A stretch of DNA of 64,000 nt from Methylophaga thalassica MP (lineage in GTDB: Bacteria > Pseudomonadota > Gammaproteobacteria > Nitrosococcales > Methylophagaceae): positions 372,001 through 436,000 of the forward strand of contig NZ_AFIG01000001.1 of NCBI RefSeq assembly GCF_000214595.1. Direction: 5' to 3'. Positions 49,290 through 60,929 of the stretch are shown piece after piece. Position 1 is the first letter of the stretch. Every line of letters starts with the position of its first letter. The position numbers were made by a program, and so were the translations under genes. The notes under the pieces are model-generated. The model did not search any database. It worked only from the letters and a program-made list of their open reading frames with translations, and had not been told where the DNA came from.

Positions 49290-50300
49290 CTAAGCGTCGG
49301 TTAATGCTTGATAAACAGCAAGCGTATTTTCAGTCATGGCTTCCAGTGTCATAGCTTGATGAGCAAAGACAATCGCCTCCTGCATCAGTCTTTGCCAATG
49401 AGCTGGGTTTTTCAGAAGACTTTCTAAGCGTCGACGAAAGGCTTTGCTATCTGCAATAGGGACAATTAAAGTTTTATCCAGCACTTCATTAGCAACCGGA
49501 ACATCTGTTGATAAAATTGGCATATTTAATAGTAATGCTTCGCTACACACATAGGAGAAACCTTCTCGTCTGGAACTGATTAACACGCCATCACAGGACT
49601 GCATCAGTGAACTGACATCAGGTCGGTAGCCCGTTAGACGACAATGTGTATCAGGGGATAGCTCCTGAATTTGTTTTTGTAGGCGATGTCTTTCCTTGCC
49701 TTCACCAATAATGAGCAAGTTCAAGTGCAGGCCGTCTATGGCCTCCAGCAATAAATCAAAACCTTTTGCTTCAACCAAACGACCAACAGCACATAATGTG
49801 GGTAAGTCAGGATTCAGCCCAAACTCTTTATACAGATTAATCTTTTTTACCTTTGGCGATGAAATGCCATTGTAGACAGTCACTGCATTCGGGGTATTCA
49901 ACTGAGAGCGTAGCGTGTTACTAACCGCGATAGCTTGATCCAGCTTGGCGTAATCTTTTACTTTGCTTTTGATGTTGTGCAGTGTTCCCACGGTTTTTGC
50001 TGAATGGAAACAGCGACATTTATTTAACACCGCCGTCGCTTTATTGGCCTGGGCATGCACAATATCGGCATTGGAGCGATGGATGAAATACAGCACCTTT
50101 AACCAGAGCCATGGATTATTTCGGCTTAGACGGGCATTCACCGGAAAATGCTGTATTTGCTCAGGTAAGGTATCTAAAAACTGAGGATCAGCAATAACAC
50201 TGACCGTGTGCCCGGCTCTATTGAGGCTAATAGAAAGTTCGCGAACATGTTTTTCCAGCCCACCCTCACCTCTGCTTAATAGGATCTGACAGGTATTCAC
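49290..50300 (-). CDS. Glycosyltransferase family 4 (second of two)
   Basis: A 336-residue GT-B-fold enzyme. The N-terminal half has LLSRGEGGLEKHVRELSISL and ADIVHAQANKA; the C-terminal half has LPTLCAVGRLVEAKGFDLLL and the GT4 Glu-x7-Glu motif in REGFSYVCSEALLLNMPILS. It transfers a nucleotide-activated sugar, probably to LPS core; donor and acceptor are unknown. Its start overlaps the preceding GT4 gene by 4 bp (ATGA-type). Confidence 0.88.
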   Translation of the reverse strand: MNTCQILLSRGEGGLEKHVRELSISLNRAGHTVSVIADPQFLDTLPEQIQHFPVNARLSRNNPWLWLKVLYFIHRSNADIVHAQANKATAVLNKCRCFHSAKTVGTLHNIKSKVKDYAKLDQAIAVSNTLRSQLNTPNAVTVYNGISSPKVKKINLYKEFGLNPDLPTLCAVGRLVEAKGFDLLLEAIDGLHLNLLIIGEGKERHRLQKQIQELSPDTHCRLTGYRPDVSSLMQSCDGVLISSRREGFSYVCSEALLLNMPILSTDVPVANEVLDKTLIVPIADSKAFRRRLESLLKNPAHWQRLMQEAIVFAHQAMTLEAMTENTLAVYQALTDA

Positions 50301-51418
50301 GATGCGGCGCTTTGCTGTAAAACGCGTTTATAGACAGATAAGGTGGTGTCTAACATGGATTGCAAAATGAAAGGATGGGATTCCGGCACGGTAGGTGGGG
50401 CAAGTAACCATTTTGTTGCTAAGCTGATAACTGCGGATTTATCACCGGTTCTCACTCTGCCTTCTGGTAACACTGTCGAAAGTTGTTCTTCTACGCCGCC
50501 ATGCGCATAGGCAATAACGGGTACACCCAGGCTCAATGCTTCAATGGTCACTCTTCCAAAGGCTTCAGGTTGGAGTGATAGTGACATCACTAAACTTGAA
50601 ATAGACATAATTTCTTTTAGATCACTTCGGTGACCAATGAAGCTGATATCGTTGATTACACCAAGTTCCGCCGCACGCTGCTGGAGCTCAGCTAAAAAGG
50701 CGGACTTTCCTTTTTTGGTTTCACCCACGATAAGTCCGTGCACATCTGAATAATATTTCTTGAGCTCAGCAATAATCTCAATAAAATCCGCCTGACCCTT
50801 CCAGCGTGTAATACGCCCTGGCAGCGTAATTATTAGTTTTCCCTGAGTTTGTGGAAAGCTTCGATACCAATGTTTCAGCCATTCGCTATCAGGTTCAAAA
50901 CCATAAGGAAAATCGCGTCTGTCTATGCCTCGGTAATTGAGGGTGAGATTGTCTTTGACCCCGTAATGGGTGGTGACATAGTCGCGAATTTTTTCTGATA
51001 CCACAAACACATGCTCGCCCTTGGTCATGATTCTGCTGTAACCGTTGACAGAATAGGTGCCGTGAACAGTAGTGATGAATTTAGGTCGTGATTGTTTGGG
51101 TAAAGATTTCCAGGCGAAATAACAGACCCATGCTGGCATACGTGAGCGGACATGCAAAATATCCACACGATTTTTCACCAGAAAGCGGCGCAATCGTGGA
51201 ATAAGACGGAATGTGGCCAGCGATTTTCTGCCAATATTCCAGTTGATATGCTCACTCCCTTGCTTGGTGAGTGTGTCAACTAAGCGTCCACCGGCTGAAA
51301 TGACAAGCGAGCGATGGCCTTGGCTTGCCAGATAGTGTCCGACTTCCAATGTGCCTCGCTCAACGCCACCCGATTCAAGCGCAGGTAATACCTGAACAAC
51401 TGTTAAACGTTCTGTCAT
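50297..51418 (-). CDS. Glycosyltransferase family 4 (first of two)
   Basis: A 373-residue GT-B-fold enzyme: VVQVLPALESGGVERGTLEV at the N-terminus, DILHVRSRMPAW, then the nucleotide-sugar domain with LIITLPGRITRWKGQADFIE and the Glu-x7-Glu motif in QPEAFGRVTIEALSLGVPVI. It likely acts in LPS core assembly. It starts 6 bp after the ELM1-family gene and overlaps the next GT4 gene by 4 bp, so the series is one operon. Confidence 0.9.
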   Translation of the reverse strand: MTERLTVVQVLPALESGGVERGTLEVGHYLASQGHRSLVISAGGRLVDTLTKQGSEHINWNIGRKSLATFRLIPRLRRFLVKNRVDILHVRSRMPAWVCYFAWKSLPKQSRPKFITTVHGTYSVNGYSRIMTKGEHVFVVSEKIRDYVTTHYGVKDNLTLNYRGIDRRDFPYGFEPDSEWLKHWYRSFPQTQGKLIITLPGRITRWKGQADFIEIIAELKKYYSDVHGLIVGETKKGKSAFLAELQQRAAELGVINDISFIGHRSDLKEIMSISSLVMSLSLQPEAFGRVTIEALSLGVPVIAYAHGGVEEQLSTVLPEGRVRTGDKSAVISLATKWLLAPPTVPESHPFILQSMLDTTLSVYKRVLQQSAAS

Positions 51419-51424
51419 TAAGGA

Positions 51425-52390
51425 TTAACTGAGCTGCGGTAAAGGTAGGGTTTGAGGTTGTACCGCTGCATCTAACCAGTTTTTCATGATCCAGTCAGCA
51501 CAGCGTTCTGATTCCATAAATCCCGGAACAGGTTGCAGGCGGCTTTTATAATGACCCAGGCTATCGAAGCGAACCGCATAGCCATCACCGACAAGTTTGC
51601 TGAGTCCTCGCGACACACGGTTATCGCGTTTAACAGGCATATTAAGAATACCGACGGCCGTTTTAGCGGTGAGTGCCTCATATACCATTGAGACAGAGTC
51701 TTCGCTTATCCAGGCGCTGTAACATGCGGCTAATTGCCGTGCGACCCAATTCCGATCCGTTTCTTCAAACGGCACAATCGTCAGATTCTCCAGTTTGAAG
51801 CCAAGCATATGAGTGGCAAAATTTGCAGGTGTACGGGGAGAGGTGGTCAGCGTATAGTGAATGCGAGGGTTTTGTTTACAAAGCTGAGTAACCTGTGAGA
51901 TGAGTTGGCTTTCGTTCCAGTCACAGTGTTTGGATGGGCCACCAATCATTATCAGACCTTCGTTTTTTTATGTCTCACCAGCGGCATGGATAGGGTTAAG
52001 CACCCCCCGGGTTTCCAACACATTCCCACCACCTTGATAATAGTCATGCTCTGGTATTAAGCTAAGATCAAAAAACGACACAGGTAAGCTGGGCTGCATC
52101 AAGACAATCGTTTGCCCGCCATACACTTTTTTTGCTGCCAGCATGTGAAGATGCGTGCGATGACCTGCTCCGACGATGAGATCAGGTAATGGCAGTCCCT
52201 GACCTGCAGGCCAGGTCGTACTCAATAAGTCAAACACAGGTTGTAGACGACCACTTACCGGAATATCAAAACTTTCACAGGGCATTTTACGTTTCAAGGC
52301 ATTGACCAAACCCAAGGACTGACTTTGATGACCGGGTTTTCCATCAGTGAGCCGCCAGATAGTAATGTTTTCAGCGTTATTAGTACTCAT
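51425..52390 (-). pseudogene. ELM1 family (DUF1022) gene split by an in-frame TAA
   Basis: The two halves make up one protein of about 320 residues of the ELM1/DUF1022 family (GT-B-like, often in LPS loci). The N-half starts MSTNNAENITIWRLTDGKPGHQSQS (quoted in two parts: ITIWRLTDGKPGHQSQSLGL) and ends at TRGVLNPIHAAGET. A TAA at 51968-51970 follows, and seven codons later, in the same frame, the C-half continues with GGPSKHCDWNESQ. No shift of frame is needed, so a single base change (for example CAA to TAA) explains it. It may be a recent nonsense mutation, a sequencing error, or two separate translated parts. Confidence 0.8.
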
Positions 52391-52588
52391 GGTGACAGCA
52401 CCTAAGATTAAATAAAAAGCAAAGTTGCCTCTGTCTAGCAAGGCGATTTGCTGTGGACTATAGGGCTGGAGTATTAAAGTTTTATGAAAATGAGAGATAC
52501 TTCGCAGAAAATAAATTAGGGAGTCTTGTCTCTGGAAGCGTCAGCCGAGCTGAGTCATAGTGAGACAGCGGCATCAAAAGGAGTGAAT

Positions 52589-53038
52589 ATGATTGAGCGT
52601 GATGAAGATACATTTAGTGCGTTAAAGGAAATGGCTGAAGATGCGCAATTGAGCTCCCGTAACTACAATGACGAATTAATCGGACTCGAGTATTACAGTA
52701 ATCTGGCCGTATTGAGTGATGAAGAGCTGAACTTATTAGTGAGTTTATGGCATGAGAAGTATGTGACCTGCCAAAAAGAGAAACTGGCGTCGCAATGGAT
52801 GGTCATCCAGATCTTCATTCTTATTTTATTGGCAATCTATGTGGCTTGGGTATCAGGGGGAATTGCTGGTACGCTGATCAGTATTGTGGGTGTTATCGCC
52901 ATGATCGCTATGATTGAAGATAAGCGGGTCGCTGTTGCCAAGCGGAATTTATCTGATGCCCGCCAAGTCTATCAAACACTGGGTGAACTCAAACAAAGCA
53001 GACAACGGTCTTACGAAAAACAACAACATCCCGTTTGA
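52589..53038 (+). CDS. Uncharacterised membrane protein
   Basis: A 149-residue protein with an acidic N-terminal part, two adjacent hydrophobic helices (about 70-90 and 94-112, WMVIQIFILILLAIYVAW then GTLISIVGVIAMIAMI) and a basic helical C-terminus. No family was recognised. AAAGGAG 6 bases before ATG 52589 makes this the best start, though the frame is open to 52526. It is divergent from the ELM1 gene and 59 bp before tpx, from which it is separated by a promoter. Confidence 0.7.
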   Translation: MIERDEDTFSALKEMAEDAQLSSRNYNDELIGLEYYSNLAVLSDEELNLLVSLWHEKYVTCQKEKLASQWMVIQIFILILLAIYVAWVSGGIAGTLISIVGVIAMIAMIEDKRVAVAKRNLSDARQVYQTLGELKQSRQRSYEKQQHPV

Positions 53039-53048
53039 AAATAATTGT

Positions 53049-53078
53049 TTGAACCCCGTTCTATATTGTTCATATAAC
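53049..53078 (+). promoter_or_regulatory. Candidate sigma-70 promoter for tpx
   Basis: TTGAAC (53049-53054) and TATAAC (53073-53078) are 18 bp apart and lie 19 bp before the tpx ATG, with AAAGGAG between. Sequence evidence only. Confidence 0.5.
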
Positions 53079-53097
53079 TAAAATTAAAGGAGATTTT

Positions 53098-53592
53098 ATG
53101 ACTACGGTGACATTAAAAGGCACACCTTTTGAGACTGTCGGTGAGTTACCGGCTGTGGGAAGCAAGGCACCCGAATTTAGCCTGACAAAAGATGATTTGT
53201 CTGAATTAACACTGGCAGATTTATCTGGCCGTGTCGTGTTAAATATTTTTCCGTCGGTAGATACACCTACCTGTGCGATGTCAGTCAGACAATTTAATAC
53301 AAAAGCAGCGGCACTGGATAACACGACTGTGGTTTGTGTTTCAAAAGACTTACCGTTTGCAATGGCTCGTTTTTGTGGGGCTGAAGGCATTGATAATGTG
53401 GTCACTGGTTCGGCTTTCCGTTCTTCATTTGCTGAGGATTACGGCTTATTAATGAAAGACGGACCGTTAGCCGGACTATGCTCACGTGTAGTTGTGGTCA
53501 TTGATGAAAACGGTAAAGTCGTTTACACAGAACAAGTCAGCGAAATTGCTGATGAACCTGATTATGAAAAAGCGTTATCTGCACTTAGCTAA
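53098..53592 (+). CDS. tpx: Thiol peroxidase Tpx
   Basis: A 164-residue atypical 2-Cys peroxiredoxin. The peroxidatic Cys59 is in [17 protein letters not shown] and the resolving Cys93 in [11 protein letters not shown]; the 34-residue spacing equals that of Cys61/Cys95 in E. coli Tpx. It reduces lipid and other hydroperoxides using thioredoxin, in the cytoplasm or periplasm. It stands alone between its own promoter and a strong terminator. Confidence 0.96.
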
Positions 53593-53609
53593 GACGTGTG
53601 GTAACGGTC

Positions 53610-53649
53610 AAAGCCCTGTTCAACACTACGTTGAACAGGGCTTTTTTTT
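53610..53649 (+). terminator. Terminator after tpx
   Basis: A perfect 14-bp stem (AAAGCCCTGTTCAA with TTGAACAGGGCTTT) around a 7-nt loop, ending in eight T residues. Confidence 0.92.
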
Positions 53650-53692
53650 GCTTGAAAAAGTGAGCTGAGCTTATTTTGCCGGAGGTGTGTAG

Positions 53693-54337
53693 ATGATAAA
53701 TCCGGATACACAATTATTTTCATCTGTGTCGGTGCTTGCTGAATTCCATCCTTTGGCAAGAGCGGTCCAGTTCTGGTCCGACAAAAATGGACAGCGCCAT
53801 AGTAAAGTTGTTTATGAGCATATTGCTCCGACTGCGATGCAAGCGCTGGAAGTCGATATTGCCATTATTGCGGATCAACTAGGCAAGGCGTCACTGCCAG
53901 ATTTTTATCAGTTTTGCAGTGATATTGAATTGATCTTTCACGGTGCACAGCCATCGGGTCCCGTCGCTGCTATATCTGATATTGACTGGCTGCGGTTAAG
54001 ACGTATCTCAATCTATGCTCAGTACTGGAAAAACAGGAATCCTGCAGAAGTGAATAAGCTATTAAGTTTTGTGATGGGAATTCCCCTTTATAGTCAGATT
54101 GTTGCTCAACTCATCGCTTCGGAAAAGAGTGACAGTAAACAGGAGATACTGCTGGGAATCACTTTGTCAGGCGGTGTTTATCTGGTAGGCGTGGAACGCT
54201 ATAAACAGCTTTTTAGGCGGGAAATAGATCAAGCATTTAATGAAGCAAAAGTCCTGGTTTCAGCCTTTCGGGGTACACATGAAGAAAATGCGGCTGAACT
54301 GATCAACAGTATGGTTGAAGCAGCATTACCTAAATGA
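53693..54337 (+). CDS. Protein of unknown function
   Basis: A 214-residue soluble protein without signal peptide or clear membrane helix. It begins MINPDTQLFSSVSVLAEFHP and has a middle part WLRLRRISIYAQYWKNRNPA with a C-terminal helical region. No family was recognised. CGGAGG 10 bases before the ATG supports the start. It lies between the tpx terminator and the ATP-grasp gene, 94 bp upstream of the latter, so it may or may not belong to the peptide-handling locus. Confidence 0.65.
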   Translation: MINPDTQLFSSVSVLAEFHPLARAVQFWSDKNGQRHSKVVYEHIAPTAMQALEVDIAIIADQLGKASLPDFYQFCSDIELIFHGAQPSGPVAAISDIDWLRLRRISIYAQYWKNRNPAEVNKLLSFVMGIPLYSQIVAQLIASEKSDSKQEILLGITLSGGVYLVGVERYKQLFRREIDQAFNEAKVLVSAFRGTHEENAAELINSMVEAALPK

Positions 54338-54431
54338 GGTTGAAAATTAACCTAGCTTTTAAGTCGGGTATAACTTTTGCTCTCTTTATTAACGACAACG
54401 TTCTTTTTGCTAAAACCTGATGGGGGGACTG

Positions 54432-55895
54432 ATGAAGGACATATGGAAAGACTACGATCCGGGATCATTTTTTGATGAACTCATGTTTGCAAAACATCAG
54501 CCCAGAGCATTCAGTTTTAAGTTACTTGAATACTTGCGTTGCATGGAAAAAGAAGCCTTTACGCAGCGTGTTAAAGAGTCAGAAGTGGAAATGCTGGAGC
54601 GTGGTATTACCTTCACCATATATAGCGATGCAGGGAATATAGACCGGGCTTGGCCGTTCGATATTATTCCCCGCGCTATCCCCAAAGGTGAGTGGGAACG
54701 CACCGAAAAGGGGCTGAAACAACGTATTCGTGCCTTAAATCAGTTCATTCAGGATATTTATAACGAAGGTAACATTATCAACGATGGCATTATGCCCGCC
54801 GACGTTGTGTATCAGTCAAAAGGCTACCGTAAAGAATGCCATGGTATGACACCGGCTCATGGTGTCTGGGCAAATATCTGTGGTTCTGATCTGGTACGTG
54901 ATCATGAAGGTACTTTATATGTGCTTGAGGATAATCTACGGGTGCCATCGGGTGTGGCTTATATGCTTGAAAACAGAAAAACCACTAAACGCGTTTTCCC
55001 CGAGTTATTTAAATTATTAAATATTAGTCCTGTTGATGCTTATCCCGAGCATTTAGCTGAAATGCTCGCCTCATTACGCCCCGATTTATCTAATCCCACG
55101 ATGGCTTTGTTGACACCAGGTATCTATAACTCTGCCTATTTTGAGCATGCGTTTCTGGCTCAGCAGGCAGGTTTGATTTTACTGGAAGGGGCCGATCTGC
55201 TGGTGGGTGATGACGACTATGTCTATATGAAAACCATTCATGGTCTTGAGCGTGTTGATGTGATTTACCGCCGTATCGATGACGATTTTATTGATCCGGA
55301 AGTCTTTCGCCCTGATTCGATGTTGGGGGTACCGGGCATCATGCGTTCATGGCGTGCCGGTAAGGTAGCCATTGCCAATGCGCCTGGTTGCGGTGTGGCT
55401 GATGACAAAGTCATTTATGCCTATGTGCCCGATATGATCCGTTATTACCTGAATGAAGAGCCTATCTTAAGTAATGTACCTACCTGGTTATGTCGTAATG
55501 ATGAGGATCTGCAGCACGTGCTTCAACACCTTCCTGAGTTAGTGGTCAAGCCTGCGAATGAGTCGGGTGGTTACGGTATGCTGGTCGGGCCACATTCTTC
55601 TGCGGAGAAAGTGGAAGAGTTTCGTGATTTACTAATCAATGATCCAAAAAATTATATTGCTCAGCCCACCTTGAGTTTATCGGTCTCTCCCACCTGTTGT
55701 GATGAAACCATCGCCCCCCGTCATGTTGATTTGAGGCCTTTCATCCTCTCTGGAGATGATGTTTATGTCACACCTGGCGGGCTAACCCGTGTGGCGATGG
55801 TCAAAGGTTCATTAGTAGTTAACTCATCTCAGGGTGGAGGAAGTAAAGATACCTGGATTGTCGATGAAAGCCGCCAGCTTGTGGAGGAAGACTAA
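54432..55895 (+). CDS. Circularly permuted ATP-grasp type 2 protein (DUF404/DUF407)
   Basis: A 487-residue member of the circularly permuted ATP-grasp group. Segments are FDIIPRAIPKGEWERTEKGL, YVLEDNLRVPSGVAYMLENR, VKPANESGGYGMLVGP (nucleotide binding) and the C-terminal LRPFILSGDDVYVTPGGLTR. Comparative-genomics work predicts amide/peptide bond-forming ligases acting with alpha-E proteins and, often, transglutaminases or Anbu. ATG 54432 is preferred over 54420 because GGGGGG lies a good distance upstream. Its last base overlaps the alpha-E start (TAATG). Confidence 0.9.
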   Translation: MKDIWKDYDPGSFFDELMFAKHQPRAFSFKLLEYLRCMEKEAFTQRVKESEVEMLERGITFTIYSDAGNIDRAWPFDIIPRAIPKGEWERTEKGLKQRIRALNQFIQDIYNEGNIINDGIMPADVVYQSKGYRKECHGMTPAHGVWANICGSDLVRDHEGTLYVLEDNLRVPSGVAYMLENRKTTKRVFPELFKLLNISPVDAYPEHLAEMLASLRPDLSNPTMALLTPGIYNSAYFEHAFLAQQAGLILLEGADLLVGDDDYVYMKTIHGLERVDVIYRRIDDDFIDPEVFRPDSMLGVPGIMRSWRAGKVAIANAPGCGVADDKVIYAYVPDMIRYYLNEEPILSNVPTWLCRNDEDLQHVLQHLPELVVKPANESGGYGMLVGPHSSAEKVEEFRDLLINDPKNYIAQPTLSLSVSPTCCDETIAPRHVDLRPFILSGDDVYVTPGGLTRVAMVKGSLVVNSSQGGGSKDTWIVDESRQLVEED

Positions 55896-56836
55896 TGTTA
55901 TCCCGTGTTGCTGAAAGGGTTTACTGGTTAGCACGTTATCTGGAACGTGTAGAAAACACGGCTCGTTTAATTAATGTGCATACCGCATTGTTAATGGACT
56001 TACCGGAACATATGGAAGTGAACTGGTTTACCTTAGTGACCATTTTTGATGCGGAGCAGCTTTATTACGCTAAACACCCCCGCGAAAATGAATATGACAT
56101 CATGCATTTTCTGTTGTCTGATCCCAGCTATGGTGGCTCACTTATCAATAATTTATCTGCTGTCAGAGAAAATGCTCGGACGTCACTTGATGTGCTGCCT
56201 GAGGAAGTGTGGGAGCAAGTCAACGAGCTGCACCTATTAGTGAAAAGCGAATTATCATCTATTGGAAATAGGCGCAGAAGACAGAAGTTATTACTCACTA
56301 TTATGGAGGCTTGTCAGTGTATATGGGGTATGATTGCTAATCATATGAGCCGTAATTACGCCTATGATTTCCTACAAGCAGGTAAACATCTTGAGCGGGC
56401 AGATATGACAAGCCGAATACTTGAGCTCGCTACTTTATTAATGTCAGATAATCGTAGTGATGCTTTAAGGCAGCATGAAGGTATTTTGTGGGCGACCTTG
56501 CTTAGAGTGTTAAATGCTCAGCAAATGTATATTCAGGCACATAATTCGTCACTAAAGGGCGAGAAAGTACTCACGTTCTTAATTCAGGATAAAGCCTTCC
56601 CTCGTTCATTAAGTTTTTCGGTCAATTCTATAGGCAATTACCTGGAGTATTTACCGGGTGAGAAACAAGTACTGGAACAGCAGATTGAGATTTTGACACG
56701 ATTACAGGACTACAGTGCGGAGAAAAATCCACCGGAAACCATACGACTGATGATGGATGAGTTACAGATTTTGTTAAATCGTTTGAATACCAGCATTACC
56801 AGTAATTGGTTTTATCCGGATTATTCAGTCTCATGA
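55895..56836 (+). CDS. Alpha-E domain protein (DUF403)
   Basis: A 313-residue all-helical alpha-E protein. MLSRVAERVYWLARYLERVE followed by NTARLINVHTALL is the family start, AGKHLERADMTSRILELAT holds the Glu-Arg-Ala-Asp motif, and the C-terminus is NRLNTSITSNWFYPDYSVS. Alpha-E proteins occur almost always beside the ATP-grasp type 2 gene and are thought to act with it; the exact function is unknown. It overlaps the ATP-grasp gene by one base and the metallopeptidase gene by 4 (ATGA), so the three should be co-translated. Confidence 0.92.
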   Translation: MLSRVAERVYWLARYLERVENTARLINVHTALLMDLPEHMEVNWFTLVTIFDAEQLYYAKHPRENEYDIMHFLLSDPSYGGSLINNLSAVRENARTSLDVLPEEVWEQVNELHLLVKSELSSIGNRRRRQKLLLTIMEACQCIWGMIANHMSRNYAYDFLQAGKHLERADMTSRILELATLLMSDNRSDALRQHEGILWATLLRVLNAQQMYIQAHNSSLKGEKVLTFLIQDKAFPRSLSFSVNSIGNYLEYLPGEKQVLEQQIEILTRLQDYSAEKNPPETIRLMMDELQILLNRLNTSITSNWFYPDYSVS

Positions 56837-57882
56837 GACGTTTCTTTTGCCAGTGTGGGCAAGAAATCTTTTTTGAAAACACGCACTGTGGTGTCTGTGG
56901 CAGTCAATTAGGCTTTATCCCTGAGCTGCAACAACTTTCAAGTCTGCAAGAAGATGATAATGCCTGGCTGATGACGGATCTTTTTCCGTTACAACGTTAT
57001 CGCAGTTGTTTTCACCGTGACCATGAGCTGGCTTGTAACTGGTTAATCCCAGCTGATTCGCCCAACACGCAGTGTATTTCCTGTGCCTTGACCAGAACGA
57101 TACCGATGTTGACCCAGCCGGATAATTGGCGTCGTTGGCGCACGCTGGAAGCAGCCAAACGCCGTATGATTTATGGTTTACTCAGATTAAATCTGCCAAT
57201 TAACGCTTATTATCAGGGCTATGAGCATGGCTTGGTGTTTGATTTTCTTGAAGATCAGCGAACGAATCCTGACTTAGCCCTTGAACATGTGTTGAGTGGT
57301 CATAGCCAAGGTGTGATTACGCTCAATGCTGCCGAGGCGGATGGTAGCTTCAGGGAAGCTACCCGTGAAGCGATGAATGAATCTTATCGAACTTTGCTGG
57401 GCCATTTTCGTCATGAGATTGGCCACTACTATTGGGATATCTTGATTAAAGAGACAGAACATTACGCCATTTTCTGTGATGTATTCGGTTTTACTGAACA
57501 AGATTATCAAAGCAGTTTAAATAGCTATTACAGTGATGGGCCGGCGACGGATTGGCCGGAGTTTTATCTGTCTGCATACGCCAGCGCTCACCCAATGGAA
57601 GACTGGGCAGAAACGTGGTCACATTATCTGATGATGAGTGACACCATGGAAACAGCGGTGGCTTATGGGCTGATTGACCATTTTGATTATGCCAGTGATT
57701 TTGATGTATTGATGACTGATTGGTTGTCGCTGGTGGTGAAAATGAATGCATTAAATCGAAGTGTGGGTAATACAGATGCCTACCCTTTTGTCGTGTCAGC
57801 CTCAGTGAGAAAAAAACTGAAATTTATTCATCAGCTGCTGAATCCGTTGAAAAAGACTCGGGAATCCGTGGCATTTCTTTAA
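56833..57882 (+). CDS. Putative zinc-ribbon metallopeptidase
   Basis: A 349-residue protein with an N-terminal zinc ribbon (Cys6, Cys8, Cys19, Cys22), a second Cys pair (CISC, residues 81-84), and a zincin active site HEIGH at 194-198; a downstream Glu/Asp-rich segment (MEDWAETWSHYL) could give the third ligand. It belongs to a putative zinc-binding metallopeptidase family seen with alpha-E/ATP-grasp genes. Start at ATG 56833, overlapping the alpha-E stop. It is convergent with Anbu, overlapping by 59 nt. The substrate is unknown. Confidence 0.85.
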   Translation: MRRFFCQCGQEIFFENTHCGVCGSQLGFIPELQQLSSLQEDDNAWLMTDLFPLQRYRSCFHRDHELACNWLIPADSPNTQCISCALTRTIPMLTQPDNWRRWRTLEAAKRRMIYGLLRLNLPINAYYQGYEHGLVFDFLEDQRTNPDLALEHVLSGHSQGVITLNAAEADGSFREATREAMNESYRTLLGHFRHEIGHYYWDILIKETEHYAIFCDVFGFTEQDYQSSLNSYYSDGPATDWPEFYLSAYASAHPMEDWAETWSHYLMMSDTMETAVAYGLIDHFDYASDFDVLMTDWLSLVVKMNALNRSVGNTDAYPFVVSASVRKKLKFIHQLLNPLKKTRESVAFL

Positions 57883-58576
57883 ATGCCTGATTCAGTTTAT
57901 TACCCCATTCACGACGTAAATTAATCAGAAAAGCATCTTCCGTATCAAAGCGATAGTGATGTTTAAACGCTAAGCTATCGGTTTCATATATCAATACTTC
58001 AATAGGTGGCCCAACACTGACATTACTCTTCATGGTCGAATCCATGGATATTAAGGAGCAGGTGGCGGCATCCGTTAACGAGGTTTTCATTGTCAGAAAG
58101 CGATCCAGCACGGGTTTGCCGTATTTGCTTTCGCCAATCTGCAGATAGGGTGTTTCGCGACTGGTGGTAATGTGATTTCCTTGGGGATAAATCAGAAAAG
58201 CCTGTGGCGGTTGGCCTTTGATTTGTCCTGCCATCAATAAAGTGGCATCGGGTGAAAAGCCGGACTGTTGGTCTTCGCTGTAACGTTTGATACGCTGGCT
58301 TAATACATCACCTACATAATCGGCAGTATCGGATAGATAATGAGTCGTATTGAGGCTGGTTTCATTATCTTCACGCAGATCCCGGTTCAGCTGTTCTATC
58401 ACACATTGCGTGGTAGCCAGATTACCCGCGCTTAGAATGGCGATACAGCGATCAGCCTTTGTACTGAAACGAAACATCTTGCTGTATGTGCTGACCTGAT
58501 CAATACCTGCGTTGGTTCTTGAGTCGGAGGTAAGCACTAATCCTTTATCTAGTGATATGGCAATACAATAGGTCAT
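57824..58576 (-). CDS. Anbu, proteasome-like Ntn peptidase
   Basis: A 250-residue proteasome-family protein. After removal of Met1 the N-terminal Thr would be the nucleophile (TYCIAISLDKGLVLTSDSRT); Asp17 and Lys32 (mature numbering, YSKMFRF) fill the other catalytic places, as in HslV and proteasome beta subunits. Length and motifs match Anbu, the ancestral beta subunit. Anbu genes are known to cluster with ATP-grasp, alpha-E and transglutaminase-like genes; here the first two are present and a metallopeptidase replaces the third. Natural substrates are unknown. Confidence 0.92.
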   Translation of the reverse strand: MTYCIAISLDKGLVLTSDSRTNAGIDQVSTYSKMFRFSTKADRCIAILSAGNLATTQCVIEQLNRDLREDNETSLNTTHYLSDTADYVGDVLSQRIKRYSEDQQSGFSPDATLLMAGQIKGQPPQAFLIYPQGNHITTSRETPYLQIGESKYGKPVLDRFLTMKTSLTDAATCSLISMDSTMKSNVSVGPPIEVLIYETDSLAFKHHYRFDTEDAFLINLRREWGNKLNQAFKEMPRIPESFSTDSAADE

Positions 58577-58791
58577 AGTCGTTCCAGTAATGGCTGCGAT
58601 TAAAGATAGTCAAAAATAAGAGATTGAGCAATCCTGATTTATTGCTCACGACAAAAGAATGGAACCCGTTGATGGGCTACTGAGTCGTTACAGTATGAAT
58701 CGATGTATTAACAGCGCTGTTAACTCGCATTCACATGTGAAATATTATCTCGGATATGACGTCTGAATTCACCTTTTTAACGGAGTAAATG

Positions 58792-59712
58792 ATGGAATCA
58801 ATAAAAACTTTTATTGAAGAGATCAGCTGGTCTGCCATTATTACTGCCAGCTTGCGAATGGTGCTTATCTTTATTATTGCCTGGGTGGCGACGTGGTTGA
58901 TGAAATCGGCACTGCAGCGCTTTGAAGTAAGACTGGTCGGGAAGGCGACCGCGAGGGGCGAGTCTTCATTGGAATCCAGAAAGCGCATCGAAACCATTGT
59001 CAGATTGTTAAAACAAGCCGGCCTATTGGCAATATGGATTACTTTTTTCCTGATTATATTAAGAGAAATTGGCGTGGAAGTCGGACCGCTTATTGCCAGT
59101 GCCGGGATTGTCGGCTTGGCGATTGGCTTTGGGGCGCAAAACCTGGTGAGGGATGTGATTTCAGGCTTTTTTATGATTCTGGAAAATCAGATACGGGTCG
59201 GTGATGTGGCCGTGATTAATGGTACCGGTGGTTTAGTAGAGGCCATTAATTTCCGCACCACCGTATTACGCGATTTGGCCGGTATTGTGCACTTTTTTCC
59301 AAATGGCACGATTACCACACTAAGTAATATGACGACTGAATGGTCAGCTTATGTGTTTGATATCGGCGTGGCGTATAAAGAAAATACCGATGAGGTAATA
59401 GAAGTCATTCGGGAAGTCGCTGATGGGCTGATGGCCGACGAAGATATGAAAAACTTGATTCTTGAACCACCCGAGATTTTTGGTGTGGATAAACTCGATA
59501 ATTCGGCAGTGATTATTAAGGGCAGAATCAAAACGCTGCCCATTCAACAGTGGACGGTTGGCCGAGAGTTTTTAAGACGCATCAAGCTGAGCTTTGATGA
59601 GAAAAATATCGAAATTCCATTCCCTCACAGCACGGTTTATTTCGGCGAAGCCAGTAAACCATTTGACGTGAAATTGATGGAAGCAGCCGCGAATCAATCA
59701 AAAGAGACATAA
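58792..59712 (+). CDS. MscS family small-conductance mechanosensitive channel
   Basis: A 306-residue MscS-type protein with two to three N-terminal membrane helices and the pore helix motif ASAGIVGLAIGFGAQNLVRD followed by VISGFFMILENQIRVGDVAV, then the beta domain (VEAINFRTTVLRDLAGIVHF FPNG region) and a C-terminal alpha/beta part. It opens on membrane tension to release solutes during osmotic downshift. GGAG precedes two consecutive ATGs (58789, 58792); the second has the better spacing. Its end overlaps the convergent WG-repeat gene by 19 nt. Confidence 0.92.
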   Translation: MESIKTFIEEISWSAIITASLRMVLIFIIAWVATWLMKSALQRFEVRLVGKATARGESSLESRKRIETIVRLLKQAGLLAIWITFFLIILREIGVEVGPLIASAGIVGLAIGFGAQNLVRDVISGFFMILENQIRVGDVAVINGTGGLVEAINFRTTVLRDLAGIVHFFPNGTITTLSNMTTEWSAYVFDIGVAYKENTDEVIEVIREVADGLMADEDMKNLILEPPEIFGVDKLDNSAVIIKGRIKTLPIQQWTVGREFLRRIKLSFDEKNIEIPFPHSTVYFGEASKPFDVKLMEAAANQSKET

Positions 59713-60800
59713 CCCCATTTACCCTCATGTTTGACCGGTGCCAAGCCGTTATTAAACGGTTTGGCATCATCATACTGAGGAGGAATAACCAGCTCACCAC
59801 GTTGGTTGATATAACCATAATCCCAGTAATCTAAGGTGACGGCTGCCAGCCCTTCCTGAAAAGACTGGCCCCATTTATATTGAGGTTCGATAACAAGCTT
59901 GCCCGTTGCATCCAGATAGCCGACTTTTCCGGCTTTTTCTACTCTGGCCAGACCATCTCTATATGACCAGGCATTATCATAAAGCGGGCTGACCAGCTCA
60001 TTTCCTTGTATATCAATATAGCCATATTTGCCATTATGCATCACCACGGCTTTACCTTCACTAAAGGGCTGAGCGTGCTCATATTCTTTATCATTTAATA
60101 AAGTGCCGTCTTGAGATATAAACCTCCAGCTTTGATTGTTACTGACTAAGGCGCGCTGCTCATTAAAAGAGTAAACAGTGTCGTATTTGGGGGTAATCAC
60201 TATATGACCTTGAGTGTCTACATAGCCCCAACCATCATTTGTTTTCACCGCTGCCAGGCCGCCACTAAAGCGCTTTGTGTCACGAAATTTTGCCTGAACA
60301 ACCCATCTGCCTTGTTCATCAATAAATCCCCAGGAGCCATATTGTTTCACAGCGGCTTTGCCTTCCTGAAAGATGTCAGCTTTATCAAATCGGGGAGAGA
60401 TCACCCACTCACCTTTTGTATTAATGAATCCCCACTTATCTTCTTCTAATACAGCTGCTAAGCCTTCATTAAAAGAGGTTAGTTTCTTAAATATGGCAGG
60501 AATGACTATCTGACCACTGGTATCAATAAAACCCCAGCGCTGATCAATGCGGATTGGCGCAAGTCCCTCATTAAACGCTTTTATTTCAATGTGTTTTTGA
60601 GGCGGCAGAATAAATTCACCAACCGTGTTGATAAGACCAACATAAGGTATGCCTTGTTTATTCTGTACAACAATAGCGGTGTCTTGATAGAAGGGGCTAA
60701 CGGCATCAAAGTCATAATTAATGACTATCTTATTTGCCATGGCAGCAGAGAATGGCATGAGAGAGAAAGTCAGAAGGATTTTAATCATAAAACGTTTCAT
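59694..60800 (-). CDS. Secreted WG-repeat protein
   Basis: A 368-residue protein with a signal peptide (about 1-22) followed by about eight WG (KWG) repeats of 38-42 residues, each with a Gly-Leu-Ala-x-Val strand, a Trp/Tyr-Gly-Phe/Tyr-Ile-Asp turn and an Ile-x-Pro-x-Tyr/Phe-Asp strand. WG repeats form beta structures of unknown function, often in cell-surface or secreted proteins. The start codon is one of GTG-ATG-ATG-ATG at 60809-60798; the ATG at 60800 has the best distance to AAAGG. Confidence 0.88.
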   Translation of the reverse strand: MKRFMIKILLTFSLMPFSAAMANKIVINYDFDAVSPFYQDTAIVVQNKQGIPYVGLINTVGEFILPPQKHIEIKAFNEGLAPIRIDQRWGFIDTSGQIVIPAIFKKLTSFNEGLAAVLEEDKWGFINTKGEWVISPRFDKADIFQEGKAAVKQYGSWGFIDEQGRWVVQAKFRDTKRFSGGLAAVKTNDGWGYVDTQGHIVITPKYDTVYSFNEQRALVSNNQSWRFISQDGTLLNDKEYEHAQPFSEGKAVVMHNGKYGYIDIQGNELVSPLYDNAWSYRDGLARVEKAGKVGYLDATGKLVIEPQYKWGQSFQEGLAAVTLDYWDYGYINQRGELVIPPQYDDAKPFNNGLAPVKHEGKWGYVSFD

Positions 60801-60929
60801 CATCATCACCTTTGACGTTGATTGTTAACTTGAGTCTCTGCCGCTTAACGTGAATTTCACGTGAACCTAATAACAATATAAATCAAAGGTTTATTTTATA
60901 TTTGTAGGGCTTTCAGAAATGGGTTGTCG

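What the first reader, a model, noticed from the sequence alone, without database searches (positions are those of the whole stretch)
53693..58576. Anbu / ATP-grasp / alpha-E / metallopeptidase locus: a predicted peptide synthesis and breakdown system
A circularly permuted ATP-grasp ligase, an alpha-E protein and a zinc-ribbon HEIGH metallopeptidase overlap by 1-4 bp and run convergently into Anbu. The known neighbourhood has a transglutaminase-like gene; here a metallopeptidase takes its place, and an unknown 214-residue protein lies just upstream. It suggests a peptide tag or small peptide made by the ligase and processed by two peptidases of different chemistry.
Basis: partly seen in the sequence, partly recalled or inferred. 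Interest (0 to 1): 0.75.

Follow-up and report, generated by a model that had tools for sequence, protein, structure and literature searches.

The report
Anbu gene cassette lacking its transglutaminase
Four neighbouring genes in a methanol-eating marine bacterium form a compact set that probably builds and then cuts a small peptide when nitrogen runs short; it is a variant of a known but unsolved bacterial system in which a zinc peptidase sits where other bacteria keep a transglutaminase-like enzyme.

Summary
The genus is Methylophaga. There Alpha-E, Mx and Anbu come all together or not at all (13 of 23 genomes all, 8 none, 2 cut by contig ends), at two or more chromosomal places, with one clear empty site. 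Mx is convergent with Anbu in 31 of 80 fetched Anbu loci, 29 within 65 bp; 26 show the same order onward to Alpha-E. The system's transglutaminase was not found in this genome. The 214-residue gene is not part of it: it is a genus core gene beside a peroxiredoxin gene, and the cassette is elsewhere in 8 of 15 carriers. Across the phylum Mx tracks Alpha-E (81 of 84 genomes) and, given Alpha-E, is independent of Anbu (P 0.66), so 'Mx replaces transglutaminase' fits this lineage, not generally. New here: a sigma-54-type -24/-12 element starting 42-54 bp before the ligase in 15 of 15 cassettes, with one match elsewhere in 292 kb of Methylophaga DNA, in line with published nitrogen control of transglutaminase-type relatives. 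What is made and cut remains inference.

The parts
54367..54381 (+). sigma-54-type -24/-12 promoter-like element GGYAYR-N4-TTGCW, 5' of the ligase gene
   Evidence: only match in the 64 kb window, though 0.74 are expected there by chance; 15 of 15 Methylophaga cassettes have it 42-54 bp before the ligase start; 11 of 12 matches in 291,564 bp of Methylophaga DNA lie at cassettes
54420..55895 (+). circularly permuted ATP-grasp amidoligase, 491 aa
   Evidence: Pfam CP_ATPgrasp_2 9.7e-162; solved relative 3N6X 2e-157
55895..56836 (+). Alpha-E helical protein, 313 aa; 1 bp overlap with the ligase gene
   Evidence: Pfam 4.3e-72; no solved relative by sequence
56833..57882 (+). double-zinc-ribbon metallopeptidase (Mx), 349 aa; 4 bp overlap with Alpha-E
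   Evidence: Pfam PF10005 + PF15887; H194, E195, H198, E256, D257, E260 and C59, C68, C81, C84 in all of 102 aligned rows
57824..58576 (-). Anbu, proteasome-like Ntn-hydrolase, 250 aa; convergent, 59 bp overlap with Mx
   Evidence: solved Anbu proteins at E 3e-100 to 6e-80; T1, D17, K32 invariant in 9 aligned
58603..58631 (-). conserved promoter-like element TTGCYS-N14-GWCTATMTT 5' of Anbu
   Evidence: seen in the 12 aligned Methylophaga Anbu upstream regions, window included; 11 matches in 24 Methylophaga loci, all 5' of Anbu
53693..54337 (+). 214-aa orphan: NOT part of the cassette, a Methylophaga core gene
   Evidence: in 21 of 23 genus genomes incl. 6 of 8 cassette-less ones, 0 of 15 others; next to the peroxiredoxin gene in 18 of 21, not in 2, undecided in 1
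53610..53644 (+). strong terminator-like hairpin (15 pairs, T run) between peroxiredoxin and the orphan

Best explanation
This is a compact, transglutaminase-less variant of the Anbu amidoligase/peptidase system. Shown here: four genes behave as one cassette, carry their own sigma-54-type promoter-like element, and have kept the catalytic residues of zincin and Anbu. Inferred: under nitrogen limitation sigma-54 RNA polymerase transcribes ligase, Alpha-E and Mx; the ligase, with Alpha-E as its partner, uses ATP to form amide bonds and makes a short peptide, free or on a protein; the zinc metallopeptidase Mx processes it in the role that the transglutaminase-like protein fills elsewhere; and Anbu, made from its own promoter on the other strand, hydrolyses the product so that its amino acids return to the cell.
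For: Unit: all-or-none in 21 of 23 genus genomes, the other two cut by contig ends; at least two insertion places and one clear empty site; co-divergence of the four proteins over 34 loci plus the window, r 0.83-0.91 (not corrected for species relatedness). Mx convergent with Anbu in 31 of 80 Anbu loci, 26 of them with Alpha-E next beyond Mx (counted). Transglutaminase missing: own genome has only TgpA, and each of 20 Methylophaga genomes tested, cassette or not, has one such long frame; PF08379 is over cut-off in 3 of 25 genomes with the linked transglutaminase-less locus. G426 has linked ligase, Alpha-E and Mx but no match for Anbu or the transglutaminase N-domain in the genome, which ties Mx to the ligase. 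Regulation: element in 15 of 15 cassettes; also enriched 5' of other ligase genes, 10 of 51 against 7 of 562 control frames, P 8e-8. Published for transglutaminase-type relatives: P. putida PP_2685 and PP_2688 up 2^4.4 and 2^4.0 on nitrate against ammonium (PMC8050072, passage); B. cenocepacia DUF404/DUF403/transglutaminase cluster under NtrC and sigma-54 (PMC5491218, passages). The A. caldus Anbu cluster lies near glnA, glnL and ntrC, with transposases between.
Against: Published Anbu shows no peptidase activity on three test substrates and no complex with its operon partners, and its ligase was only shown to release phosphate from ATP (PMC6376114, passages). Given Alpha-E, Mx and Anbu are independent across the phylum, and 43 of 60 Mx genes sampled have no system gene nearby. 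In 4 of 31 Mx-linked Anbu loci the ligase lies on the far side of Anbu, as in 2 of the 3 Anbu-linked Mx loci of the phylum sample, so the four-gene order is not fixed. Phylogenetically independent pairs do not reach significance for replacement. No NtrC-like site was seen upstream in the window with one simple pattern, and rpoN and ntrC were not looked for in this genome. In all 15 cassettes the element lacks the first T of the consensus.
Confidence: 0.5

Rival explanations
1. The ligase/Alpha-E product is a small amide metabolite (glutathionylspermidine-like or another polyamine or amino acid conjugate), not a peptide tag; Mx and Anbu are amidases that recycle it.
For: The only solved relative of the ligase is annotated as a putative glutathionylspermidine synthase; Ntn-hydrolases can cleave non-peptide amides (discussed in PMC6376114, passages); nitrogen control fits a nitrogen metabolite.
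Against: Anbu and Mx both belong to peptidase families; no polyamine gene was recognised, by eye only, beside the three cassettes whose flanks were listed.
Confidence: 0.25
2. Mx acts on the machinery rather than on the product: it is a maturation or regulatory protease for Anbu, Alpha-E or the ligase.
For: Adjacency and convergence of Mx and Anbu (29 of 31 within 65 bp), kept even where the ligase lies on the other side of Anbu; Anbu purified alone was inactive (PMC6376114, passages), so an activator may be missing.
Against: 49 of 80 Anbu loci have no linked Mx and 104 of 161 Anbu genomes have no Mx match; G426 has Mx with ligase and Alpha-E but no Anbu match; Anbu starts MTYC, so no propeptide needs cutting beyond Met (inference).
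Confidence: 0.12
3. Mx is only a passenger: a member of a widespread zincin family that happened to be captured by one lineage of the cassette.
For: Independence of Mx and Anbu given Alpha-E; 43 of 60 Mx genes have no system gene nearby.
Against: Overlapping reading frames, full catalytic conservation, 81 of 84 Mx genomes hold Alpha-E, Anbu-linked Mx on several branches of the Mx tree with fewer changes than shuffles (8 against a mean of 31, though the two sources of rows inflate this), and joint absence in the genus.
Confidence: 0.13

Closest known systems
Anbu operon (ATP-grasp, Alpha-E, transglutaminase-like, Anbu; Iyer et al. 2009 as cited in PMC5666114 and PMC6376114)
   Same: Same ligase, Alpha-E and Anbu families; same predicted peptide ligation and hydrolysis logic; nitrogen-linked control reported for relatives
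   Different: No transglutaminase; a zinc metallopeptidase gene overlaps Alpha-E; Anbu is on the opposite strand with its own promoter-like element
ATP-grasp/Alpha-E/large transglutaminase clusters with Mx and without Anbu (for example a Caballeronia sp. SL2Y3 plasmid)
   Same: Mx beside Alpha-E and a permuted ATP-grasp
   Different: Two transglutaminase genes, no Anbu in the stretch shown
RimK/RimB and RloC/RloA (ATP-grasp plus peptidase; PMC12239564, passages)
   Same: Works-like comparison only: an ATP-grasp protein and a peptidase encoded together, with rescue of the peptidase mutant by loss of the ATP-grasp protein shown for Rlo
   Different: Aspartic peptidases; no Alpha-E or Anbu in the operons as described in the passages; sequences were not compared here

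Membership tests
Anbu (proteasome-like Ntn-hydrolase) | sequence match to solved Anbu proteins | tested here: met
   5LOY, 5NYW, 5LOX, 5NYJ, 5NYF at E 3e-100 to 6e-80
Anbu (proteasome-like Ntn-hydrolase) | catalytic Thr1, Asp17, Lys32 (residues named in PMC6376114) | tested here: met
   invariant in 9 aligned sequences
Anbu (proteasome-like Ntn-hydrolase) | open-ring assembly and hydrolase activity | not testable with these tools
Canonical Anbu operon | CP ATP-grasp and Alpha-E genes linked to Anbu | tested here: met
Canonical Anbu operon | transglutaminase-like gene | tested here: not met
   PF08379 0 matches in own genome; single PF01841 match is TgpA
Canonical Anbu operon | four genes in one operon in conserved order | tested here: not met
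   Anbu is on the opposite strand
Canonical Anbu operon | sigma-54/NtrC control (reported for relatives) | tested here: inconclusive
   -24/-12 element in 15 of 15 cassettes; NtrC site not seen in the window; rpoN and ntrC not looked for
Peptidase_Mx with DZR_6 zinc ribbon | both domains over the Pfam cut-off | tested here: met
Peptidase_Mx with DZR_6 zinc ribbon | HExxH plus downstream acidic residue as third ligand | tested here: met
   H194, E195, H198, E256, E260 in 102 of 102 rows; which of them binds zinc is inference
ATP-dependent protease (HslUV or proteasome type) | AAA+ unfoldase gene in the locus | tested here: not met
   none among eight proteins of 52526-59709 scanned with Pfam; the rest of the genome was not searched
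Anti-phage defence system | match to PADLOC models | tested here: not met
   0 matches for five proteins

The most novel reading that the evidence does not exclude
A sigma-54-switched peptide-tagging cycle with two chemically different hydrolases: in many gammaproteobacteria the ligase and Alpha-E put a peptide on nitrogen-rich proteins or cofactors during nitrogen starvation, a zincin that has displaced the transglutaminase trims or removes it, and the convergently encoded Anbu ring degrades the tagged product, a proteasome-like recycling route without an unfoldase.
Probability: 0.15. Interest if true: 0.85.

Novelty: new variant of a known kind. Interest (0 to 1): 0.55.

Why it matters
Anbu is a candidate ancestor of the proteasome, and the papers whose passages I saw (PMC5666114, PMC6376114, PMC8665760) know no substrate, activator or function for it. 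This variant reduces the system to four genes, lacks the transglutaminase that has shaped its interpretation, names a conserved zinc peptidase as a partner to assay together with Anbu, and supplies a likely induction condition (nitrogen limitation) and a natural control (sister species without the cassette). If the reading is right, a long-standing question becomes directly testable in a harmless methylotroph.

Tried and rejected
The 214-aa protein as a partner: rejected on distribution and place; it has no Pfam match over cut-off, and no NCBIfam, PADLOC or solved-structure match.

Mx as a general Anbu partner: rejected at phylum scale, since given Alpha-E the two are independent and 43 of 60 sampled Mx genes have no system gene nearby.

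Strict replacement of transglutaminase by Mx: weakened. Of 25 genomes with a transglutaminase-less Mx/Anbu locus, 3 have PF08379 over cut-off and 4 more only below it, and 10 of 25 hold at least one Transglut_core frame of 250-320 aa, the size of the small Anbu-operon type (counted by eye; one of the ten is a weak match). The independent-pairs test had only 5 pairs on supported branches.

First sigma-54 scan with up to 2 mismatches over TGGCAC-N5-TTGC found 55 matches against 67 expected, none at the cassette. The element was seen only after aligning upstream regions, so the window match by itself is not significant (0.74 expected); its weight rests on the 15 cassettes, of which several are close relatives, and on the wider test. 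Pattern and threshold for that test were set after seeing the Methylophaga motif; the 51 ligase genes in it are outside Methylophaga. In the separate phylum set the figures are 2 of 17 ligase genes (two near-identical loci), 2 of 10 DUF2126 and 1 of 60 Mx frames against 0 of 726 controls. Control frames are long unlabelled open frames, some surely not genes. Sigma-70 scan: below the shuffle mean, uninformative. Rfam: nothing in 53000-60000. Plasmids: relatives exist, all under 60% identity; signs of a mobile element were not looked for beyond that.

Rows dropped: 60 of the Mx matches, from 58 genomes, were fetched by hand choice among the long ones; the remaining long ones and the short fragments were not. 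One of the 80 Anbu loci fell out of the count for lack of a full-length frame. The 80 loci are the best by similarity to this Anbu out of at least 595, so their proportions are not those of all Anbu loci. G011 and G018 (68% and 82% complete) weigh little as absences. ATP-grasp was not itself searched in the eight cassette-less genomes.

Iyer et al. 2009 and Valas and Bourne 2008 are not held, so whether they mention the metallopeptidase could not be checked. Searches for it in print; none of the passages read names it with Anbu, but most subscription papers are outside the library.
Full report
WHAT IS THERE. The window lies in a genome of 3.26 Mb in 3 contigs, rated 100% complete. A genome placed in the same genus (G004) has a contig with a public name, Methylophaga (L068; same length as G004 contig C62 and an identical Mx), so the genus is Methylophaga. 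From 54420 to 58576 stand four genes: a circularly permuted ATP-grasp ligase, an Alpha-E protein, a zincin with a double zinc ribbon (Peptidase_Mx, here Mx) and, on the other strand, Anbu. The first three overlap by 1 and 4 bp; Mx and Anbu overlap tail to tail by 59 bp. Anbu is certain by comparison with solved structures; the ligase has one solved relative, 3N6X; Mx and Alpha-E have none by sequence. Mx keeps H194, E195, H198, E256, D257, E260 and four zinc-ribbon cysteines in all of 102 aligned rows, four further cysteines in 90-92%. Anbu keeps T1, D17 and K32, the residues named in PMC6376114 (passages).

THE UNIT. Among 23 Methylophaga genomes (own included) Mx is found in 14, Anbu in 13, Alpha-E in 14 plus a fragment at a contig edge in G001. 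The one Mx genome without Anbu, G003, has its contig end inside Mx (L224); G001's contig ends inside Alpha-E (L229). So 13 genomes show all three, 8 show none, 2 are cut. The ligase was seen in all 15 carriers; it was not searched in the other eight. In 7 carriers the ligase end of the cassette lies beside the 214-aa gene (G000, G003, G004, G006, G008, G013, G022); the Anbu end then faces MscS in G000, G008, G013 and G022, the gene next to MscS in G006, and is not in view in G003 and G004. In 8 carriers the cassette is elsewhere (G001, G009, G012, G016, G017, G019, G020, G021); in G009 and G016 the Anbu end faces a GGDEF-like gene and Tad-type secretion genes (these names were recognised by eye). 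In cassette-less G005 the 214-aa gene is followed by MscS after about 190 bp, a clear empty site; in G014 after about 1.3 kb.

THE 214-AA GENE IS NOT PART OF IT. It is in 21 of 23 genus genomes, including 6 of the 8 without the cassette, and in 0 of 15 genomes outside. It lies next to the peroxiredoxin gene in 18 of 21; in G012 and G019 it does not, and G001 cannot be judged. Between the two genes stands a strong terminator-like hairpin, so a separate transcript is likely, and the cassette has a promoter-like element of its own downstream of it.

BEYOND THE GENUS. One scan of genome contigs gave 80 Anbu loci, the best by similarity and so biased. In 31 Mx lies convergent with Anbu, in 29 of these within 65 bp; 26 of the 31 have no transglutaminase within 5 kb, 5 do; 29 loci have a transglutaminase and no Mx; 20 have neither. 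Reading the rows, 26 of the 31 continue from Mx to Alpha-E as in the window (the ligase is in view in 24), four have the ligase, and in three of these Alpha-E too, on the far side of Anbu (L100, L138, L142, L147), and one is cut (L101). With profile-based labels 79 loci give 4 both, 26 Mx only, 28 transglutaminase only, 21 neither, P 1.3e-4; with at least 4 kb on both sides 3, 16, 17, 14, P 0.008. On the Anbu tree only 5 independent pairs stand on supported branches; on average they go against each other in 3.0 and together in 0.6, not significant. G037, outside the family, has ligase, Alpha-E and Mx convergent with a large transglutaminase gene and Anbu, so the two can coexist, and loss of the transglutaminase from such an arrangement would give the Methylophaga form (inference). 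Of 25 genomes with the transglutaminase-less locus, the transglutaminase N-domain is over cut-off in 3, only below it in 4, not found in 18; many are metagenome bins. Ten of the 25 hold some Transglut_core frame of 250-320 aa that could be a diverged partner. Each of 20 Methylophaga genomes tested has one Transglut_core frame of 669-720 aa, cassette or not, identified as TgpA in the two examined; G004 has two further matches on contig C235.

PHYLUM SCALE. In 397 genomes of the phylum Mx is in 84, Anbu 161, Alpha-E 232, transglutaminase N-domain 227. Mx goes with Alpha-E (81 of 84), with transglutaminase (75 of 84) and with Anbu (57 of 84, P 1.8e-8), but within the 232 Alpha-E genomes Mx and Anbu are independent (57 of 81 against 101 of 151, P 0.66). 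Anbu goes with transglutaminase in 151 of 161. Five genomes have Mx and Anbu without the transglutaminase domain: in G000, G138 and G270 the two are linked, in G118 and G207 the Mx fetched is not. Of 60 Mx loci fetched from this sample, 43 have no system gene near, 12 have a transglutaminase, 3 Anbu, 2 ligase/Alpha-E only. One of these last, in G426, is the minimal form: ligase, Alpha-E, Mx, with neither Anbu nor the transglutaminase domain found in that genome. So Mx belongs to the wider ligase/Alpha-E world, and the tight Mx-Anbu cassette is one conserved form of it. On the Mx tree the Anbu-linked label needs 8 changes against 31 in shuffles; rows came from two differently chosen sources, which inflates this. 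Distances of the four proteins over 34 loci and the window correlate at 0.83-0.91, without correction for relatedness of the species.

REGULATION, A NEW OBSERVATION. Aligned upstream regions of the ligase in 15 Methylophaga cassettes share GGYAYR-N4-TTGCW, starting 42-54 bp before the place of the start codon, although the flanks differ between insertion places. This fits the sigma-54 -24/-12 consensus TGGCACG-N4-TTGC and resembles the validated Xylella glnA site TGGTATG-N4-TTGC (PMC3224663, passages), except for the first T. In 24 Methylophaga loci (291,564 bp) there are 12 matches, 11 of them at the 11 cassettes held there; none on the same strand in the 0.6-1.6 kb searched behind the 214-aa gene of six cassette-less genomes. 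In the 80-locus set, 10 of 51 ligase genes have a best match of at least 11 of 12 against 7 of 562 control frames (P 8e-8), and none of 51 Alpha-E, 30 Mx or 83 Anbu frames. Published data on transglutaminase-type relatives point the same way: P. putida (PMC8050072, passage), the B. cenocepacia NtrC/sigma-54 regulon (PMC5491218, passages), and the proteasome-type protease group among sigma-54 regulon clusters (PMC12316311, passage). Anbu itself has a different conserved element (11 matches in the same 24 loci, all 5' of Anbu; the window copy is seen), so ligase arm and Anbu arm may be controlled apart.

HOW IT PROBABLY WORKS. Shown: gene content, unit, conserved active sites, promoter-like elements. 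Inferred from the families: ATP-dependent amide bond formation by the ligase with Alpha-E, processing by Mx, hydrolysis by Anbu, under nitrogen stress. Not shown: any product, any activity, any interaction; published tests of Anbu peptidase activity and of operon complexes were negative (PMC6376114, passages).

WHAT IS KNOWN. The general system and its peptide hypothesis are published (Iyer 2009, not held; reported in PMC5666114, and PMC6376114, passages only). A search of both texts for words beginning with 'metallo' found none. The zincin nature of DUF2248 proteins was proposed in PMC3650047 (passages). Some plasmid records name such proteins putative zinc-binding metallopeptidase. I therefore file this as a new variant of a known kind; whether the Mx link is already in print outside the library is open.

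Noticed in passing
L049 (G004 contig C235): A second, 38%-identical Anbu with a small transglutaminase and a large transglutaminase-DUF2126-like gene on a short contig of a bin rated 3% contaminated; either a second system or contamination.
   Followed up: partly
L050 (G017 C3:530000-544000): A second Mx gene without system genes nearby in one Methylophaga genome; it groups with stand-alone Mx of other genomes, so perhaps a transferred paralogue.
   Followed up: partly
L230 1-17234: On the Acidithiobacillus caldus megaplasmid an Anbu, transglutaminase, ATP-grasp, Alpha-E cluster lies near glnA, glnL and ntrC, with transposase genes between.
   Followed up: no
L202 4238-7744: A three-gene form, ligase, Alpha-E, Mx, in G426, a genome without Anbu or transglutaminase N-domain matches; its Mx is the sister of the Methylophaga Mx clade (support 94).
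   Followed up: partly
window 59694-60809: Protein of 371 aa built of WG-type repeats next to MscS, present beside the insertion place in several Methylophaga species; repeat type judged by eye.
   Followed up: no
window 49290-52441: Two glycosyltransferase-like genes followed by two short frames on the minus strand (51425-51949 and 51968-52441) that look like one broken or frameshifted gene, perhaps ELM1-type (names recalled, not tested).
   Followed up: no
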